DNA of 64,000 nt from Desulfovibrio sp. A2 (lineage in GTDB: Bacteria > Desulfobacterota > Desulfovibrionia > Desulfovibrionales > Desulfovibrionaceae): assembly GCF_000226255.1 (NCBI RefSeq), contig NZ_AGFG01000034.1, positions 1-64,000 on the forward strand. Direction: 5' to 3'. The first letter of the stretch is position 1. Each line of letters starts with the position of its first letter. Below are positions 885 to 58,410 of this stretch, piece by piece. Position numbers and translations under genes: made by a program. The notes beneath the pieces are model-generated. The model was not told where the DNA came from, made no database searches, and was given only the letters and a program-made list of their open reading frames with translations.

Positions 885-1039
885 ACCCCATCCCCTCCAG
901 AACTTTTTGATTGGGGGAATGCTGGTGCCGCGAGGCGACAGCCCTGCTTGCCCCCTTACCTCGCCCGATACGCCCTACAAATTCCATGGCCGTTCTCTCG
1001 TCGCATTTCATCCATGAAACTGCCTTTCTTCCTTATACT

Positions 1040-1061
1040 CCGCGCCGGTCTTCCGGCGCGG
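1040..1061 (+). repeat. R3 hairpin repeat, copy 1
   Basis: CCGCGCCGG-TCTT-CCGGCGCGG, a perfect 9-bp stem with a TCTT loop, followed by ATGGCTGGTGCGGAC. A second copy lies at 34815-34836, with one stem pair changed from C-G to T-G and a similar downstream tail. Confidence 0.6.
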
Positions 1062-1144
1062 ATGGCTGGTGCGGACACGGTGCCAGAAATTACGAGTTTT
1101 TCGCCGGGCAAGGCGGGTTGCCATTTTTGAGCGGAGATCGGCAG

Positions 1145-3102: not shown

Positions 3103-3540
3103 CTAGGCCATGATGCGCTTGCGGTACGCGTACAGATGATAGGCGTTGAAGGCCAGAAACAGCCCGCCCGCCACGATGTGCGCCCGCTCGCGCCCGGCCA
3201 GCCCGAACAGCACCAGCGCCGCCAGCGATCCGGCCATGCCCCGCTTGGAAATGCGCATGGCCTCGGCCTTGGTCAGGCGGCGGCAGCAGCACGCCTTCTT
3301 CGGGGCCGCCTGCTCCTGCGCGACAAAGGCGTCGAGCATCTTCGCCGCCTCCAGCAACTGTTCCTGGGTCACGGCGTCCGGATCGTATTCCACCAGCAGG
3401 CCGCCGGTGCGCGGGTTGGCCGTGGCGGAAAGCACGCCCGGTGTTTCGCGCAGGGTGCCTTCGATGGCGGCCGCCGCGTCCGGGTTGCGCAGCGCGTCGC
3501 ACCGGATGCGCACCCTGCCGTCGATGAAGCTGCTGATCAT
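3103..3540 (-). CDS. HMA-like domain protein with C-terminal membrane segments
   Basis: 145 residues. Residues 1-75 form an HMA-type ferredoxin-like fold (DGRVRIRCDALRNPDAAAAI, TPGVLSATANPRTGGLLVEYDPD) without the CxxC of metallochaperones. Then come a cluster KKACCCRR and a hydrophobic region (GMAGSLAALVLFGLAG, AHIVAGGLFLAFNAYHLYAYRK) with probably two membrane helices. It is the last gene of the minus-strand operon, 51 bp after the P-type ATPase, whose N-terminus carries the same kind of cysteine-free HMA domain. The CCC motif just before the membrane could be the metal ligand. A membrane partner of the pump is the simplest inference. Confidence 0.75.
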   Translation of the reverse strand: MISSFIDGRVRIRCDALRNPDAAAAIEGTLRETPGVLSATANPRTGGLLVEYDPDAVTQEQLLEAAKMLDAFVAQEQAAPKKACCCRRLTKAEAMRISKRGMAGSLAALVLFGLAGRERAHIVAGGLFLAFNAYHLYAYRKRIMA

Positions 3541-3591
3541 TATCCACCTCTCCTTGCCGCGCCGGGCGCGGCCCTGCTGCGGATGCGTCCG

Positions 3592-6399
3592 TTATGCCGC
3601 GCCGGAATTCCGGGGCTTGCGGGCAGCCTTGCCCGTGGCCTTGGCCCCGCCTTTGGCGGACTTGGATTCTGTGGACTGTACGGCTATGGCGGGCTTGACC
3701 GACTTGATGGGCTTGGCGGGCTTGACCGCAGCCGGAGCCGCAGCCTTGTCCGATCTGGTGGGCCTGGCCGGTTTGTCCGCCTTGGCCGGAGCCGTTGCCG
3801 AGGCCTTGTCCGGCGTGGCAGCGTCCGGTTGCCCGGCGGCCTTGCCCTTGCCTGCCATGGCCCCCACGGCCTGCACCGCGCCCTGCACGGTGGCCTTCAG
3901 CGCGGCCCCGATGGCGGCCCCCGCCCCGGCTACTCCCGCCGCAACCCGTGCGGCGGGCGAAACCACGACGACAGCCGGGCCAGCGACAGGCTCTCCGGTA
4001 ACGCCAACGGGCAGCGCCATCATGCCCGGCCTGCGCTCCGCCCCGCGCCGTCCTTCCGGCGCGCCGTTGCCCAGCATGGGCCGCATGGCGTTCAGCGCCA
4101 CGCCCACGGTGGTCAGGTTGTGCAGCAGGGCCAGCATGCCCGGCTGTGCCCGGCCCACCAGGCCCAGGGCCATGAACGCCGTGTTCAGCCCCATGATGGA
4201 GCTGAAATTGACGTGGATGCGCCGCAGGGTGGCCTTGGCCAGCCGCCGCGCCACCAGCAGTTCGGCAAGGTCGTTGCCGGAAAGCACCACGTCGGCCACC
4301 TCGCGGGCAAGGTCCGCCCCGTCGCGCAGGGATACGCCCACGTCGGCGGCGGAAAGGGCGGGCGAATCGTTGATGCCGTCGCCCACCATGACCACCTTGC
4401 CGCCCTCGGACTGCAACTGCCGCACGATGTCGGCCTTGTCCGCGGGCAGCACCTGGGCGCGCCATTCGTCCACGCCCACGGCGGACGCCACCGCCGCCGC
4501 CGTCACCGGCCCGTCACCGGTCAGCATGATGATGCGCTTCACGCCCTGCTCGCGCAGGCCGCGCACCACGTCGGCGGCCTCCGGCCGCAACGGGTCCTCT
4601 ATGCACAGGATGCCCGCCAGCTTGCCGCCGATGGCCAGATGCAGGATGGAGTAGCCCTTGGCGGCCCACTGGTTGATCACGGGCAGGAATTCGTCCAGCG
4701 GCACGCCCTCGTCCTCGTGGACGAAGTGGCGGCTGCCCACCAGCACCCGTTCGCCGCGCAGGCGTGAGGCGATGCCGTGGGCCACCACGTATTCCACCTC
4801 GGCGTGCTCTTCCTGATGGTCCAGCGCTTCCTGCTCGGCCTTGCGCACCACGGCGCGGGCCACGGGGTGGGGAAAATGCTCTTCCAGGCATGCGGCCAGG
4901 CGCAGCACGTCGTCACGGCCATGCCCGTTCAGCGAGATGACCTCGGCCACGCGGGGCCGCGCCTCGGTGAGGGTGCCCGTCTTGTCGAAGACCACGGTAT
5001 CCGCGCCAGCCAGCCCCTCGATGAACCGGCCGCCCTTGATGAGCACGCCGTGGTGCGCCCCTTCGCGCATGCCCGTCAGGATGGCCAGCGGCGTGGCCAG
5101 ACGGATGGCGCAGGAATAGTCCACCAGCAGCACCGACGCGGCCCGGGCCACGTCGCGGGTGACGGCCCACACCCCGCCCGCCAGCAAAAAGCTGTACGGC
5201 ACGATGGCGTCGGCCAGGCGCTCGGCCTTGCCCTGCACGTTGGCCTTCAGGGCCTCGGAACGTTCGATGAAGCCCACGATCTGGTTGATGCGCGTCTCCG
5301 ACCCCACGCCGGTGGGCCGGATGTCCAGCCGCCCTTCCTCCACCACGGTGCCCGCGTAGACGGACGCACCGGCCCGCCGGGCCACGGCCAGCGGCTCGCC
5401 GGTCATGGAGGTCTGGTTGACCATGGCCTCGCCCTCGGCCACCACGCCGTCCACCGGGATGGACGAACCGGCGCGCACCACCACCAGGTCGCCTTCGGCC
5501 AGGGCTGAAAGGGGCACCTGCACCTCTGCCTCGCCGCGCTTCACCCACACGGTGTCCACGTCCACGGCAAGGCTTTCGGCCAGACTTTCGCGCGACTTCT
5601 TGCGGGTCCATTCCTCCAGGAACTCGCCCACGGCGAACAGCGCGGTGATCAGCCCCACGGAGCGGAAGTCGCCCCGCACCAGCGAGATGCCCAGCGCCGC
5701 CGCGTCCAGCACGTCCACGTTGAGACGGCCCGAGGCCAGCGAACGCCCCCCCTTGAGCAGGAAGGGCAGCGCGCGAAAGAAGGCGGACACCATGCGCACG
5801 ATGCGCGGCAGGAAGGGACGCAGGATCAGGTAGCGGACCAGCCCGCCCGCGCCGGGCGCGGCGCTGGCCATGGCAAGCCCGCCCAGACCTGCGACGCCCG
5901 CAGCCCCGGCGGCTCCGTCCATCGCAACGGCTCCCATGCCGTGCAGCCCGGCAACGGCGGGAGCCCCCGGCGGCAGGTGCGCACCCATGGGGCCGCGCGC
6001 CTGGCGGACTGCCCCGGCCGCAGCCCCGGTATCGGACGCCGCGCCGCGCATGCGGCGTTTGCCGGAGGATCGCGCGGCAGAGGCTGCCTCGCGGCCGCCT
6101 TCCTGCGCCCCGCCCCCCCGGCCGGATTGGGTCGGCTGGCCCGCCCTGGCGCGCGCGCGCCGCGCCGGGCCGCCACCGGCCACGAAGCCATCCACCACGG
6201 TCAGCACCTCGCCCCGCGCCGCGGGGCTTGCGTAGCGCACCAGCACGCTGCCGGTGCTGACGGTGGCGTGCGCCTCGGCCACGCCGGCCACGGCCACGAT
6301 GCGGGCCACGAGGTCGTGCGCCCGGTCCTGGGAAAGCGAACCGGGGGCGCAGCGCAAGCGCAGGCGCCCCGGCAGTTCGTGAGCTATGCGATAGTCCAT
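3592..6399 (-). CDS. P1B-type heavy-metal-translocating ATPase (CtpC-like)
   Basis: 935 residues, an ATP-driven cation pump of the inner membrane. Order: a cysteine-free HMA domain (HELPGRLRLRC, residues ~8-75), an Ala/Gly/Arg-rich linker to ~170, membrane segments, the actuator domain with SMTGEP, the transport motif S429-C430-A431 in DYSCAIRLATP, phosphorylation site D472 in DKTGT, HP in EHFPHPVARA, GDGINDSPAL, and final helices near HNLTTVGVALNAMRP. The usual Cys-Pro-Cys is replaced by S-C-A. The last ~110 residues are a low-complexity Ala/Lys/Pro tail resembling histone H1, very unusual for this family. The gene sits between a PacL-like protein upstream and an HMA-like protein downstream. 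The metal is uncertain; Mn, Zn or Fe is suggested by CtpC-like context only. Confidence 0.88.
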   Translation of the reverse strand: MDYRIAHELPGRLRLRCAPGSLSQDRAHDLVARIVAVAGVAEAHATVSTGSVLVRYASPAARGEVLTVVDGFVAGGGPARRARARAGQPTQSGRGGGAQEGGREAASAARSSGKRRMRGAASDTGAAAGAVRQARGPMGAHLPPGAPAVAGLHGMGAVAMDGAAGAAGVAGLGGLAMASAAPGAGGLVRYLILRPFLPRIVRMVSAFFRALPFLLKGGRSLASGRLNVDVLDAAALGISLVRGDFRSVGLITALFAVGEFLEEWTRKKSRESLAESLAVDVDTVWVKRGEAEVQVPLSALAEGDLVVVRAGSSIPVDGVVAEGEAMVNQTSMTGEPLAVARRAGASVYAGTVVEEGRLDIRPTGVGSETRINQIVGFIERSEALKANVQGKAERLADAIVPYSFLLAGGVWAVTRDVARAASVLLVDYSCAIRLATPLAILTGMREGAHHGVLIKGGRFIEGLAGADTVVFDKTGTLTEARPRVAEVISLNGHGRDDVLRLAACLEEHFPHPVARAVVRKAEQEALDHQEEHAEVEYVVAHGIASRLRGERVLVGSRHFVHEDEGVPLDEFLPVINQWAAKGYSILHLAIGGKLAGILCIEDPLRPEAADVVRGLREQGVKRIIMLTGDGPVTAAAVASAVGVDEWRAQVLPADKADIVRQLQSEGGKVVMVGDGINDSPALSAADVGVSLRDGADLAREVADVVLSGNDLAELLVARRLAKATLRRIHVNFSSIMGLNTAFMALGLVGRAQPGMLALLHNLTTVGVALNAMRPMLGNGAPEGRRGAERRPGMMALPVGVTGEPVAGPAVVVVSPAARVAAGVAGAGAAIGAALKATVQGAVQAVGAMAGKGKAAGQPDAATPDKASATAPAKADKPARPTRSDKAAAPAAVKPAKPIKSVKPAIAVQSTESKSAKGGAKATGKAARKPRNSGAA

Positions 6400-17269: not shown

Positions 17270-17490
17270 GGCTTCTACGTATACAGTCCTGCCCTGTTGA
17301 TCCCCCTCGATTTCGCTATGTCTCCGACGGACAGGGGGCCGCTTAGCGGCGGCCCCCTGTACCCCCGCGCTCCGGGGGGCGCTGCCCCCCTGGTCCCCCC
17401 AGCGTTTCCTGCACCGCATTCTCACCGGGCAGCTTCCCTCCGGCGAAAGACGCCTTCGGGCGATCTGCCCGGCGGAATGCGTATGTGCGC
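17270..17490 (+). repeat. R1 composite intergenic repeat, locus A forward
   Basis: Starts GGCTTCTACG, then CGATTTCGCTATGTCTCCG, a hairpin near GGGGGCCGCTTAGCGGCGGCC, CCCCGCGCTCCGGGGGG, CACCGCATTC, CAGCTTCCCTCCGGCG, CGCCTTCGGGCGATCTG and GGAATGCGTATGTGCGCC. The same ordered blocks occur at 19850-20130 and 57336-57560, and inverted at 17794-18020 and 58001-58226. Confidence 0.8.
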
Positions 17491-17660
17491 CAAACTCCCG
17501 TTGCCCCCATCCTACCTGGGCGTCCCTACCCATGCCCCCGTTGCGACGCATGTGCCGCCGTCAAAGCCCGGCGTCACACGCTTTTACGCACTTCACGTTT
17601 CCTTTGAACCGGCCCAAATACACACGCGACTCATAGCCTAATCGCGCCACCGGGAGATTG

Positions 17661-17745
17661 GTGCGCATTGGCGGCACCGGCGGCAGATCCCCCGGAGGCG
17701 CCCCTGCGCCGACGGGAAGCTGCCGCCGTAGGGACGCCGCGCAGG
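17661..17745 (-). repeat. R1 tail-block repeat, partial
   Basis: Reverse-oriented tail block: GTGCGCATTGGCGG, GGCGGCAGAT, GGGAAGCTGCCGCCG, GGGACGCCGCGCA. The same block appears forward at 20180-20262 and within 57483-57560. Confidence 0.65.
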
Positions 17746-17793
17746 AGACGTGTTGCAAGGGCACCCTCGTTACGCCGCAACGACGAAAGATTG

Positions 17794-18020
17794 GCGCACA
17801 TACGCATTCCCGTCGCCAGATCGCCCGGAGGCGCGCCAGCGCCGCAGGGAAGCTGGCGGCGAAAGGAATGCGGTGCAGGATACGTTGGGGGTCCAGGGGT
17901 GGCGAAGCCCCCCTGGAACGCGGGGGTGCAGGGGGTGTTCGTTACAACACCCCCTGCCCGCCGGAGGCATAACGAAATCGGGGGCAATCAACAGGGCAGT
18001 ACCGCCTTCGTAGAAGCCGC
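17794..18020 (-). repeat. R1 composite intergenic repeat, locus A reverse
   Basis: Reverse complement of the R1 order: GCGCACATACGCATTCC, GGGAAGCTGGCGGCG, GGAATGCGGTGCAGG, GGGGTCCAGGGG, CCCTGGAACGCGGGGGTGCA, CCGCCGGAGGCATAACGAAA, ACAGGGCAGT and CTTCGTAGAAGCC. Together with 17270-17490 it forms an inverted pair about 300 bp apart. Confidence 0.8.
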
Positions 18021-19849: not shown

Positions 19850-20130
19850 GGCTTCTACGAAGACAGTCGTGCGCTGTTGTGAACGCTCGATTTCGTTATG
19901 TCTCCGACGGGCAAGGGGCCATTGAGCGATGGCCCCTTGCATCCCCGCGCTCCAGGGGGGCTGCGCCTCAGCTCTGCTATCTTCATCCGTAAGACTCGCG
20001 CTTCGCGCTCGTCTAACGGCTGGAGTCCTGGACCCCCAACGCATCTTGCACCGCATTCCTTCCGCCGCCAGCTTCCCTGCGGCGCTGGCGCGCCTCGGGC
20101 GATCTGGCGACGGGAATGCGATGTGCGCGC
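19850..20130 (+). repeat. R1 composite repeat, locus B, interrupted by R2
   Basis: Starts CGGCTTCTACGAAGACAG and runs through CGATTTCGTTATGTCTCCG, the hairpin GGGGCCATTGAGCGATGGCC, CCCCGCGCTCCAGGGGGG, then, after a 57-bp insert, CCTGGACCCCCAACGCATC, CACCGCATTCC and GGCGACGGGAATGCG. The uninterrupted form at 57336 reads straight through from GGGGGGCTTCGCCTC to CCCTGGACCCCC. Confidence 0.8.
19970..20026 (-). repeat. R2 hairpin repeat nested in R1, copy 3
   Basis: A 57-bp insert carrying CCGTAAGACTCGCGC (19987-20001), a TTC loop and GCGCTCGTCTAACGG (20005-20019). Read on the minus strand it aligns to the R2 copies at 1145 and 1258. It splits the CTCCCCTGG block of the surrounding R1 element, so R2 appears to have moved into an existing R1. 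Confidence 0.75.
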
Positions 20131-20179
20131 GGCTCTCGTTACAGTGGTGAAGGTCTGGGGCGTGCGTGTATCAACAATT

Positions 20180-20262
20180 GTCTTGCGCGGCGTCCCTTCG
20201 GCGGCAGCTTCCCTCCGGCGCAGGGCGCCTTCGGGCTATCTGCCGCCGGTGACGCCAATGCG
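20180..20262 (+). repeat. R1 tail-block repeat, partial
   Basis: GCGCGGCGTCCCTTCGGCGG, CAGCTTCCCTCCGGCGCAGG, GCGCCTTCGGGCTATCTG, CCGCCGGTGACGCCAATGCG. Near-identical to 57483-57557 and to the reverse of 17661-17745. Confidence 0.7.
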
Positions 20263-20498
20263 CGCGGTGCTCCCGGAGTGCGGACGCAGGTCCGGGTCGT
20301 GCCTTGCCCGAAAGATTGGTCTGCGGTGCACCCGCGACGCCGGAGCTTCCGCCGTCGCAAGGCCTCCGGCGGCGATTTCCGGCTGCGGGCGCAATCCGCG
20401 CGGAAGGCCGTCGTTAGCTGGGGCGGGAATAAAGCAAGACGCAGCTGAACGGCTGGATATTCACACGCTCCAACCGCCCCCGGATGAAGGACAGCGCC

Positions 20499-34651: not shown

Positions 34652-34814
34652 CCACGCACCGTCTTTTCGCCTCCGGCGTCGTCAGATGTCGCCTTTTGCT
34701 CCGGTCACGTACCAAAGAGTACGCTCCCTCCGCAAAAGACTCATCTTCCTTGCCGGAAAACGAAAATACGGCGCGCGGCGGAAACAAGTCCGCCCGCCCC
34801 GTTACCTTTACGCT

Positions 34815-34836
34815 CCGCGCTGGTCTTCCGGCGCGG
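34815..34836 (+). repeat. R3 hairpin repeat, copy 2
   Basis: CCGCGCTGG-TCTT-CCGGCGCGG followed by ACGGCTGATGCGGGC. Matches 1040-1061 with one stem change that keeps a T-G wobble. Confidence 0.6.
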
Positions 34837-34901
34837 ACGGCTGATGCGGGCGCGTGGCCCTGCGCATCACCGACACGCCTGTCCCCTTTCCCTCTCAAAC
34901 A

Positions 34902-57249: not shown

Positions 57250-57283
57250 AGGGCCTCCGCTTTCGGGCGGGGGCCCTTTTTTT
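57250..57283 (+). terminator. Intrinsic terminator of rpoC
   Basis: AGGGCCTCCGC with GGGCGGGGGCCCT across a TTTC loop, then seven T residues, 30 bp after the stop. Confidence 0.88.
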
Positions 57284-57335: not shown

Positions 57336-57560
57336 GGCTTCTACGAATACACACCAGTCCTGTTGATTACGCTCGATTTCGTTATGCCTCCGGCGGGCAA
57401 GGGGCCATTGAGCGATGGCCCCTTGCATCCCCGCGCTCCAGGGGGGCTTCGCCTCCCCTGGACCCCCGACGTATCATGCGCGGCGTCCCTCCGGCAGCAG
57501 CTTCCCTTCGGCGCCAAGGCGCCTTCGGGTGATCTGCCGCCGGTGACGCCAATGCGCACA
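57336..57560 (+). repeat. R1 composite repeat, locus C forward
   Basis: GGCTTCTACGAATACA, CCTGTTGATTACGCTCGATT, TCGTTATGCCTCCGGCGGGC, hairpin GGGGCCATTGAGCGATGGCC, CCCCGCGCTCCAGGGGGGCT, TCGCCTCCCCTGGACCCCCG, then tail block GCGCGGCGTCCCTCCGGCAG to GACGCCAATGCGCAC. This is the cleanest uninterrupted copy. Confidence 0.82.
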
Positions 57561-57609
57561 TGACTCCCGCAGACATGGCTATGCTTGGGTGCCCTGACCG
57601 TCTGCTTTC

Positions 57610-57702
57610 CTGCGCCGCGTTCCTTCCACCGCCAACTACCCTGCGGCGCTGGCGCGCCTCGGGTGATTTGGCGGTGGGACCGCGCATGCGCACGTGGCTC
57701 CC
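57610..57702 (+). repeat. R1 tail-block repeat, partial
   Basis: TGCGCCGCGTTCCTTCCACC, GCCAACTACCCTGCGGCG, CTGGCGCGCCTCGGGTGATT, then GGCGGTGGGACCGCG and ATGCGCACGTGGCTCCC. Matches the tail of the 19850 module. Confidence 0.6.
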
Positions 57703-58000
57703 GGTGGCGTGGAAAGCCAGGGGCCTTTACTCATGCCTCGTTGCGACGCATGTGCCGCCGTCAAAGCCCGGCGCACAAAACATAGGCGACGAGCAAACAT
57801 GGTATCGTGGGGTTGCCTGCTCGCTTCCATGAAGACGCACCCTCTTCGTCTACGCACAGAAAACCTCCGTGCGGCGATACGCATCCGCAGCCGGAGATCG
57901 CCGCCGAGGCTTTGCGAGGCGGAAGCACCGGCGTTGCGGATGCGCGCCGCAACTAATGCAAAGGTACGGGCACCCGAGTGAGATGGAGGCGGCGAGAGAT

Positions 58001-58226
58001 GCGGGCACATACGCATTCAGACGGGCAGATCGCCCGAGGCGCGTTAGCGCCGCAGGGAAGCTGCCCGGCGTAAGAATGCGGTGCATGACGACACGGGGTT
58101 CCAAGGGGCGGAGCCCCTTGGAACGCGGGGGTGCAGGGGGTGTTCGTTACAACACCCCCTGCCCGCCGGAGGCATAACGAAATCGAGCGGCATCAATCGC
58201 GCACGACTGACTTCGTAGAGGCCGGA
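58001..58226 (-). repeat. R1 composite repeat, locus C reverse
   Basis: GCGGGCACATACGCATTC, GGGCAGATCGCCCGAGGCGC, GCCGCAGGGAAGCTGCCCGG, GAATGCGGTGCATGACG, CTTGGAACGCGGGGGTGCAG, CCGCCGGAGGCATAACGAAA and CTTCGTAGAGGCCGG. It forms an inverted pair with 57336-57560 and closely matches 17794-18020. Confidence 0.8.
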
Positions 58227-58250: not shown

Positions 58251-58320
58251 TGCCTCCCGCCGGAGGCATGCCGAAATCGGCCGGGTTCAACAGGGCGAGA
58301 CTGTCTTCGTAAAAGCCGTG
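58251..58320 (-). repeat. R1 head unit, solo
   Basis: CCGCCGGAGGCATGCCGAAA, TTCAACAGGGCGAGACTG and TCTTCGTAAAAGCCGTG: only the head block, without tail. Confidence 0.65.
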
Positions 58321-58346
58321 CCTGTCAGGTACATTCCCTCTTATTC

Positions 58347-58410
58347 CTCGCCGAAGGCATACCGATATCGAGCATGGACATGGTGGCTGGCGTGTCTTCG
58401 TAGAGGCCGT
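58347..58410 (-). repeat. R1 head unit, solo, diverged
   Basis: CTCGCCGAAGGCATACCGAT, ATCGAGCATGGACATG and TGTCTTCGTAGAGGCCGTG. A further trace (CTCGCCGCCAAAGGCATCCC) follows at 58433. Confidence 0.55.

What the first reader, a model, noticed from the sequence alone, without database searches (positions are those of the whole stretch)
17270..18020. Inverted pair of a composite intergenic repeat (R1) after pyrC
Two ~225-bp modules in opposite orientation (17270-17490 and 17794-18020) share the same ordered blocks, from a GGCTTCTACG head to a GGAATGCG tail, with internal hairpins. The modules have no coding sense. The same arrangement recurs 40 kb away after rpoC (57336-58226), and a forward copy lies after the HD-domain gene (19850). 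All forward copies sit just downstream of the 3' end of a plus-strand operon. This looks like a genome-wide family of structured elements, possibly mobile, regulatory or RNA-encoding.
Basis: seen in the sequence. Interest (0 to 1): 0.72.

Follow-up and report, generated by a model that had tools for sequence, protein, structure and literature searches.

The report
Shuffled, flipping mosaic repeats between genes
These sulfate-reducer genomes carry well over a dozen long, mirror-image clusters of hairpins between genes; the places are old, but the parts are swapped between places, flipped and used as break points for rearrangement, an unusually elaborate kin of known bacterial interspersed repeats with no known engine or function.

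Summary
The module matches 40 places in this genome and recurs in 7 of 7 congeners. Plan: outer A units (about 93 bp, sometimes tandem), hairpins B and C, one or more E hairpins, then central H1/H2 hairpins, often mirrored in a second arm. In five genomes, 90 clusters form 19 spacer groups; 18 occur in two or more. They favour gene 3' ends: 26 of 64 convergent, against 8 of 164 control spacers. E stems covary while the loop AGATCnCC/GGAAGCT stays nearly fixed, also in two further genera. Curated Rfam scores find nothing.

Addresses last, contents do not: flanking genes are 93-95% identical, modules at the same gene end 81%, other spacers 78%. Blocks assort almost independently, 13 of 42 pairs align better inverted, and gene ends have swapped partners through elements. 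No Y1/RAYT transposase exists in 6 of 8 genomes.

Best reading: a BIME/BOX-like non-autonomous repeat population whose copies recombine with one another; E is a folded recognition site. Agent, host role and DNA-versus-RNA action are unresolved.

The parts
17270..17486 (+). Left arm after pyrC: A (about 17270-17331), B hairpin (about 17332-17359), C hairpin (about 17371-17394), E hairpin (17410-17488)
   Evidence: nhmmer full-length hit; E by covariance model R1, 91.2 bits on the minus strand; A/B/C limits read from sequence and the alignment
17540..17589 (+). H1 central hairpin (GTTGCGACGC...CTTTTACGC) of the pyrC element
   Evidence: read; recurs after E in many arms; consensus fold of 38 copies
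17663..17743 (-). Extra E hairpin in the right half (model strand +)
   Evidence: R1 80.9 bits; nhmmer 17761-17666
17798..18018 (-). Right, mirrored arm of the pyrC element (E at 17796-17877)
   Evidence: nhmmer; R1 96.2 bits
19850..20123 (+). Single arm after the HD-domain gene, with an inserted repeat-bearing stretch inside the C hairpin
   Evidence: nhmmer; alignment; sequence; R1 20047-20126
19984..20022 (+). Small REP-like palindrome lying inside the C hairpin of that arm
   Evidence: the repeat finder D6/I15; pattern scan, 19998-20019 exact
20171..20263 (+). Second E hairpin of the 19850 element
   Evidence: nhmmer; R1 93 bits
20322..20399 (+). H2 hairpin, a relative of E
   Evidence: R1 35.6 bits on the minus (model) strand; alignment with E
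57251..57283 (+). Terminator-like hairpin with T run after rpoC, lying before the element
   Evidence: read from sequence
57336..57554 (+). Left arm after rpoC (E at 57477-57557)
   Evidence: nhmmer; R1 89.4 bits
57605..57691 (+). Extra E hairpin, left half
   Evidence: nhmmer; R1 81.4 bits
57873..57949 (-). H2 central hairpin (model strand +)
   Evidence: R1 27 bits; alignment of H2 copies with E
58007..58223 (-). Right, mirrored arm after rpoC (E at 58005-58085)
   Evidence: nhmmer; R1 87.7 bits
58251..58408 (-). Two further A units in tandem (58251-58317 and 58330-58408)
   Evidence: nhmmer

Best explanation
A family of non-autonomous, composite palindromic repeats (BIME/BOX-like in kind) occupies about 16-19 intergenic clusters per genome, with a bias to gene 3' ends. 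SHOWN by comparison: mosaic, often two-armed anatomy; covarying hairpins with a nearly fixed internal loop; shared addresses; fast turnover and near-independent assortment of blocks between addresses; orientation differences of interiors; and gene ends that have exchanged partners through elements. INFERRED: copies recombine with one another (short-tract conversion, crossing over, or hairpin-templated strand switching), arms of one element exchange and flip the interior, and the E hairpin is kept because some cell factor recognises it as folded single-stranded DNA or RNA. Siting at 3' ends reflects tolerance there or a modest role as a transcription-unit boundary.
For: Copies and anatomy. Covariation: 84 full modules chosen without a motif; 8 of 22 predicted pairs with both-side changes in a 60-sequence set. 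Loop: each of its fixed columns 94.7-100% in 170 E copies, and both loop halves in 15 of 15 model hits taken from other genera. Addresses: 18 of 19 spacer groups in two or more of 5 genomes. Turnover: same gene end 81.4% (80 pairs) against 77.8% (2562 pairs), flanking genes 93-95%. Internal control: at three sites (12, 16, 17) E is 93-98% identical, as vertical descent predicts. Block correlations -0.01 to 0.21. Inversion: 13 of 42 pairs, 8 of 27 with margin above 150. Rearrangement: TrkA-EamA and X-Y joined in G004, but TrkA-X and EamA-Y in the single-contig G007. Misassembly unlikely from exact-match lengths between sites. Gain or loss at Frd-Fum.
Against: No mobilising enzyme was found, though only Y1_Tnp was sought. 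Inversion rests on alignment scores of quasi-palindromes; G000 (83 contigs) takes part in 6 of the 8 strong cases, and among G004, G005 and G007 only rpoC G004-G005 is strongly inverted. The blocks fall into few allele classes, so drift within structural limits could mimic part of the shuffling. Exact arm matches within one element reach 118 bases in G005, so a misassembly there is not excluded.
Confidence: 0.6

Rival explanations
1. Structured RNA: the hairpins work in transcripts, read from the centre outwards (module-reverse strand), as 3'-UTR stabilisers, terminators or separate ncRNAs.
For: Compensatory changes. G-U on the module-reverse strand exceeds A-C in hairpin B (distinct 22 against 6) and weakly in the E inner stem (29 against 17, p 0.10). 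In the second genus three loci lie after 23S-5S rRNA with the module-reverse strand on the rRNA strand.
Against: No such excess in H1 or H2; pooled 70 against 46, p 0.03, uncorrected for relatedness. A terminator-like hairpin precedes the element at rpoC. No Rfam match at curated scores.
Confidence: 0.25
2. DNA-level boundary element bound by gyrase, a nucleoid protein or IHF at the ends of transcription units, as E. coli BIMEs are reported to be.
For: Convergent spacers enriched, divergent depleted; sites after rpoC and, in the second genus, rRNA operons; both wobble types are rare in the stems.
Against: Many neighbours are ordinary housekeeping genes; no binding data; fast block turnover is odd for a fixed binding platform.
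Confidence: 0.25
3. Decaying relic of an extinct MITE-like transposon, shaped by neutral drift and palindrome instability.
For: Terminal-inverted-repeat-like arms, compact deletion derivatives (L159, L165, L166), an empty site, no Y1 enzyme in 6 of 8 genomes.
Against: The internal loop is nearly fixed in 170 E copies and in 15 of 15 hits of other genera while stems change in compensated pairs; neutral decay or quasipalindrome correction would not keep that.
Confidence: 0.15

Closest known systems
REP/BIME elements (RAYT-associated)
   Same: Extragenic imperfect palindromes in composite elements with opposite orientations; complementary mutations kept (passages of PMC2817692)
   Different: E hairpins of about 80 nt in 33-40 copies, not >100 short REPs; arms of about 220 bp, clusters often about 1 kb; no Y1/RAYT gene in 6 of 8 genomes; block shuffling, flipping and partner exchange between shared addresses
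Pneumococcal BOX elements
   Same: Interspersed repeats with extensive secondary structure, slow new insertion, nearly restricted to close relatives (abstract of PMC3049150); modular plan with a repeated inner unit (recalled)
   Different: Mirrored two-arm plan, different hairpins, GC-rich; homology between the two was not tested
REPINs
   Same: Interacting sequence population inside a genome (start of the abstract of PMC8049555 in a search listing)
   Different: No RAYT in 6 of 8 genomes; exchange of separate blocks
MITEs / foldback elements
   Same: Inverted terminal arms, no coding content, non-autonomous
   Different: No cognate transposase identified, and no target duplication seen by eye at the one empty site examined

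Membership tests
REP/BIME | Extragenic imperfect palindromes in composite elements with opposite orientations | tested here: met
REP/BIME | Usually more than 100 short (20-40 bp) copies per genome | tested here: not met
   33-40 E hairpins of about 80 nt in each of 4 genus genomes; feature from PMC2817692 and the start of the abstract of PMC3733652 in a listing
REP/BIME | Cognate RAYT (Y1_Tnp) gene | tested here: not met
   PF01797 over cut-off in 2 of 8 genus genomes, each a partial match, one with a stop inside; none in own, G002, G003, G005, G006, G007
REP/BIME | GTAG or CGTC tag at one end of the palindrome | tested here: inconclusive
   No such tag is evident at the ends of E in the alignment; GTAG occurs inside the A core; not scanned systematically
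MITE | Terminal inverted repeats | tested here: met
   one-armed copies lack them
MITE | Target-site duplication | tested here: inconclusive
   At Frd-Fum the element stands in place of a local hairpin; no duplication seen in that alignment; other sites not examined
MITE | Ends shared with an autonomous transposon | not tested
   Only PF01797 was sought
Known RNA family (Rfam) | Match at curated score | tested here: not met
   window: only 5 tRNAs; rpoC element: three hits, all below their gathering scores
Structured RNA | Transcription of the folded strand | not testable with these tools
   no RNA-seq held; wobble test mixed
BOX element | Sequence homology to BOX modules | not tested
   compared on description only
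Phage/plasmid element | Present on phages or plasmids | tested here: not met
   the pyrC element has no match in either collection; 32 viral-contig hits to a g51-type E pattern have 1-6 of 8 flanking pairs, so no clear stem; the own-genus type of E was not scanned there

The most novel reading that the evidence does not exclude
The elements form a genome-wide exchange system independent of RAYTs: an unidentified protein recognises the folded E motif (AGATCnCC/GGAAGCT internal loop) and copies, swaps or crosses over hairpin blocks between chromosomal addresses, so that gene ends across the chromosome share a reshuffled set of structured segments and the chromosome itself rearranges at them.
Probability: 0.12. 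Interest if true: 0.85.

Novelty: new variant of a known kind. Interest (0 to 1): 0.55.

Why it matters
It adds a large, highly structured repeat family in a widely studied bacterial group, and a good comparative case (lasting addresses, moving content, a built-in vertical control, partner exchange between gene ends) for asking how repeat populations are homogenised where no RAYT is found. A nearly fixed loop with covarying stems is a concrete target for finding the factor that reads it. It also matters practically: at least five contig ends of this draft genome lie in these elements.

Tried and rejected
RAYT/IS200 origin: PF01797 in only 2 of 8 genomes, as partial matches. Phage or plasmid carriage of the pyrC element: no match. 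Known RNA: nothing at curated scores. A strict 'after the operon' rule: not borne out. RNA strand by wobble asymmetry: positive for B, weak for E, absent in H1/H2, so not used as proof; the one background control shows the opposite substitution bias, but in block A and linker, which have limits of their own. Misassembly as cause of shuffling: unlikely, longest exact match between sites 71-81 bases in four genomes. Arm-to-arm homogenisation: not seen, arms of one site in one genome are 78.8% alike against 78.0% for other sites. Single-arm sites evolving vertically in general: rejected, only 12, 16 and 17 do.

Selections and weaknesses. Full-module comparisons use 84 of 273 hits, partial or over-long ones left out. 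The stem count parsed 161 of 170 E sequences, outer stem 95. The 60 sequences of alignment A1 were drawn at random from 120 distinct ones that fitted a motif pattern which itself fixed part of the loop, and most members of A2 were also picked with a pattern; loop conservation is therefore quoted from the unselected sets. Spacer typing used 64 of 90 clusters (19 at contig edges, 7 with doubtful neighbours). Site groups merge some neighbouring spacers; redid grouping, identity and correlations by gene end, with nearly the same values. Three of the 42 pairs (group 1) compare elements whose partner genes differ. In one search one pyrC pair (G001) was given unflipped and is not used. Gene calls come from my own codon-usage script; it missed pyrC in G000, which I set by hand.

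Full report
OBSERVATION. The two modules after pyrC, the pair after rpoC and the copy after the HD-domain gene are real and match in order and orientation. The gene names hold. The window lies in contig C51 of an 83-contig, 4.15 Mb genome; the module matches 40 places there. That the genus is Nitratidesulfovibrio is a guess from memory and was not tested.

ANATOMY. A complete element reads, from outside inward: zero to several A units, mostly 89-95 bp apart; then A-B-C-E; often a further E about 133 bp on; then often a central hairpin H1 or H2; and the mirror image on the other side. Some elements have one arm only. Compact derivatives exist: at pyrC in G007 the arms meet at the C hairpin (L159), at rpoC in G003 little more than A units is left (L165), and at rpoC in G006 only an A core remains (L166). 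H2 is related to E: the E covariance model finds two H2 hairpins in the window, at 35.6 and 27 bits, and they align with E through the internal loop AGATCnCC facing GGAAGCT.

STRUCTURE IS CONSTRAINED. Over 84 full modules chosen without a motif, stems of E and B change in compensated pairs. In a 60-sequence E alignment 8 of 22 predicted pairs show changes on both sides with the pair kept; that set was picked with a motif pattern. Without such a pattern, the fixed loop columns are 94.7-100% conserved in 170 E copies, and 15 of 15 covariance-model hits that I took from genera g51 and g38 carry both loop halves. Quasipalindrome correction could make compensated stems but would erase the internal mismatches, so I infer selection on the fold. 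Whether the folded molecule is DNA or RNA is open: G-U pairs on the module-reverse strand exceed A-C pairs in B (distinct events 22 against 6) and weakly in the E inner stem (29 against 17), but not in H1 or H2; pooled 70 against 46, p 0.03, without correction for relatedness.

RANGE. By blastn the module is in all 7 congeners searched and in 0 of 22 genomes of other genera. The A core occurs 24-43 times in each of 6 genus genomes drawn; 12 of 113 other genomes of the family have 1-3 matches. In the g51 copies read, E, GC-rich hairpins and a tandem array of units of about 75-95 bp follow in the same order. In G058, 4 model hits in three loci lie after 23S-5S rRNA, on the rRNA strand (only those three of the seven G058 loci fetched by place were given to the RNA search; nine G007 loci given with them had no rRNA). 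The pyrC element has no match in phage or plasmid records.

ADDRESSES. I fetched the clusters that blastn found in five genomes and joined them by the gene end that faces the element: 90 clusters, some of them halves cut by contig ends, in 19 groups, 18 of them in two or more genomes and 8 in all five (an earlier grouping by protein gave 22, 20 and 8). One cluster (L236) has no partner. Neighbours include pyrC, rpoC, dnaB, asnS, smpB and ptsI, ffh, typA, hisA, a fumarate reductase subunit and fumarate hydratase. Of 64 clusters between confident genes 26 are convergent, 36 tandem and 2 divergent; of 164 control spacers in the same loci 8, 120 and 36 (Fisher p 2e-10 for convergent and 3e-4 for divergent; orthologous spacers are counted repeatedly on both sides, so the p values are too small). 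Median distance is 93.5 bp to gene 3' ends and 216.5 bp to 5' ends.

CONTENT MOVES. Flanking genes are 93-95% identical in nucleotides between the genomes. Modules beside the same gene end average 81.4% (80 pairs), against 77.8% for other spacers in other genomes (2562 pairs), and identities of blocks A, B and E are almost uncorrelated (A-B 0.21, A-E 0.05, B-E -0.01; two searches gave the same picture with coarser groups). For E alone the best match in another genome lies at the same site in 186 of 510 comparisons (other sites offer more candidates). Three sites (12, 16, 17) are an internal control: there E is 93-98% identical between genomes, as vertical descent predicts. So most sites seem to have exchanged content. 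Exact matches between sites are 71-81 bases at most in four genomes, too short to make misassembly likely; in G007 the single pair above 100 bases shares an IS.

INTERIORS FLIP. Two-armed elements of the same site were aligned directly and inverted relative to flanking genes: 29 of 42 genome pairs fit better directly and 13 inverted; with a margin above 150 points, 19 and 8. At rpoC, G000 and G004 agree, G005 and G007 agree, three of the four cross pairs are inverted and G004-G007 is undecided; a 447-nt stretch of G000 matches G007 inverted at 87%. G000, a draft, takes part in 6 of the 8 strong cases, so long reads are needed.

PARTNERS CHANGE. Six gene ends face different partners in different genomes across an element. 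In G004 the trkA-like 3' end is joined to an EamA-transporter 3' end and two other gene ends (X, Y) to each other, in elements about 13 kb apart; in the single-contig G007 the joins are trkA-X and EamA-Y, also about 13 kb apart. That is what an inversion between two elements would leave. In G001 the pyrC end faces trkA (a draft of 80 contigs). This is the most direct sign that copies recombine with one another. The names TrkA-like and EamA-like rest on family matches below their cut-offs and, for EamA, on recall.

GAIN OR LOSS. Between fumarate reductase and fumarate hydratase, G001, G004, G005, G006 and G007 carry a one-armed element; G000, G002 and G003 carry instead a conserved GC hairpin that looks like a terminator (read by eye). 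The simplest history is gain by replacement, though loss is possible.

MECHANISM. PF01797 is over its cut-off in 2 of 8 genus genomes, each a partial match, one with a stop inside; the own genome has none. I therefore think exchange runs through recombination or hairpin-templated strand switching between dispersed copies, and flipping through the two arms. The nearly fixed E loop points to a reader of the folded motif. A host role at transcript ends is plausible but unproven; at rpoC a terminator-like hairpin already precedes the element.

COMPARISON. The nearest kinds are REP/BIME elements (passages of PMC2817692), pneumococcal BOX elements (abstract of PMC3049150) and REPINs (search listing). 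It works like them as a dispersed, structured, non-autonomous mosaic, but fails the copy-number and RAYT features of REP/BIME. I found no prior description in these searches, of which I saw listings only: 'Desulfovibrio vulgaris' with intergenic, repeat elements and palindromic, 0 papers; 'Desulfovibrio' with 'repetitive extragenic palindromic', 3 papers, unrelated by title, of which the top 15 of 300, 15 of 16 and 12 of 14 were listed. A term search of PMC3733652 finds no Desulfovibrio, and one of PMC11124144, an ncRNA survey of Oleidesulfovibrio alaskensis G20, finds no 'repeat' or 'palindrom'. The library is open-access only.

Noticed in passing
L176 about 3890-5170 and L183 about 3140-4430 (G007): The same IS (rve integrase core and HTH_Tnp_1 ORFs; IS3-like is my recollection) sits at the same module position (about 91-95, beside the B hairpin) in two different elements, with an exact shared block of 659 bases: the repeats are targets for an IS.
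   Followed up: partly
window 19984-20022; 1142-1193 and 1255-1306: A separate small REP-like palindrome (CATCCGTAAGAC...GTCTAACGGCTG), once inside an element and as diverged copies 113 bp apart near the start of the window.
   Followed up: partly
L277, L278, L279 (G058, genus g51): Related composite repeats with tandem units lie directly after 23S-5S rRNA genes, same strand.
   Followed up: partly
L269 690-1750, L270 177-1510, L268 408-1362 (G058): A second repeated unit, about 355 bp apart in L269 and L270, precedes the E part in genus g51; its nature is unknown.
   Followed up: no
G000 contigs C18, C20, C51, C52, C53: At least five contig ends of this draft genome lie in or at these elements.
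   Followed up: no
window 1033-1084 and 34808-34859: Another 52-nt repeat pair, 83% identical, not part of the element as described.
   Followed up: no
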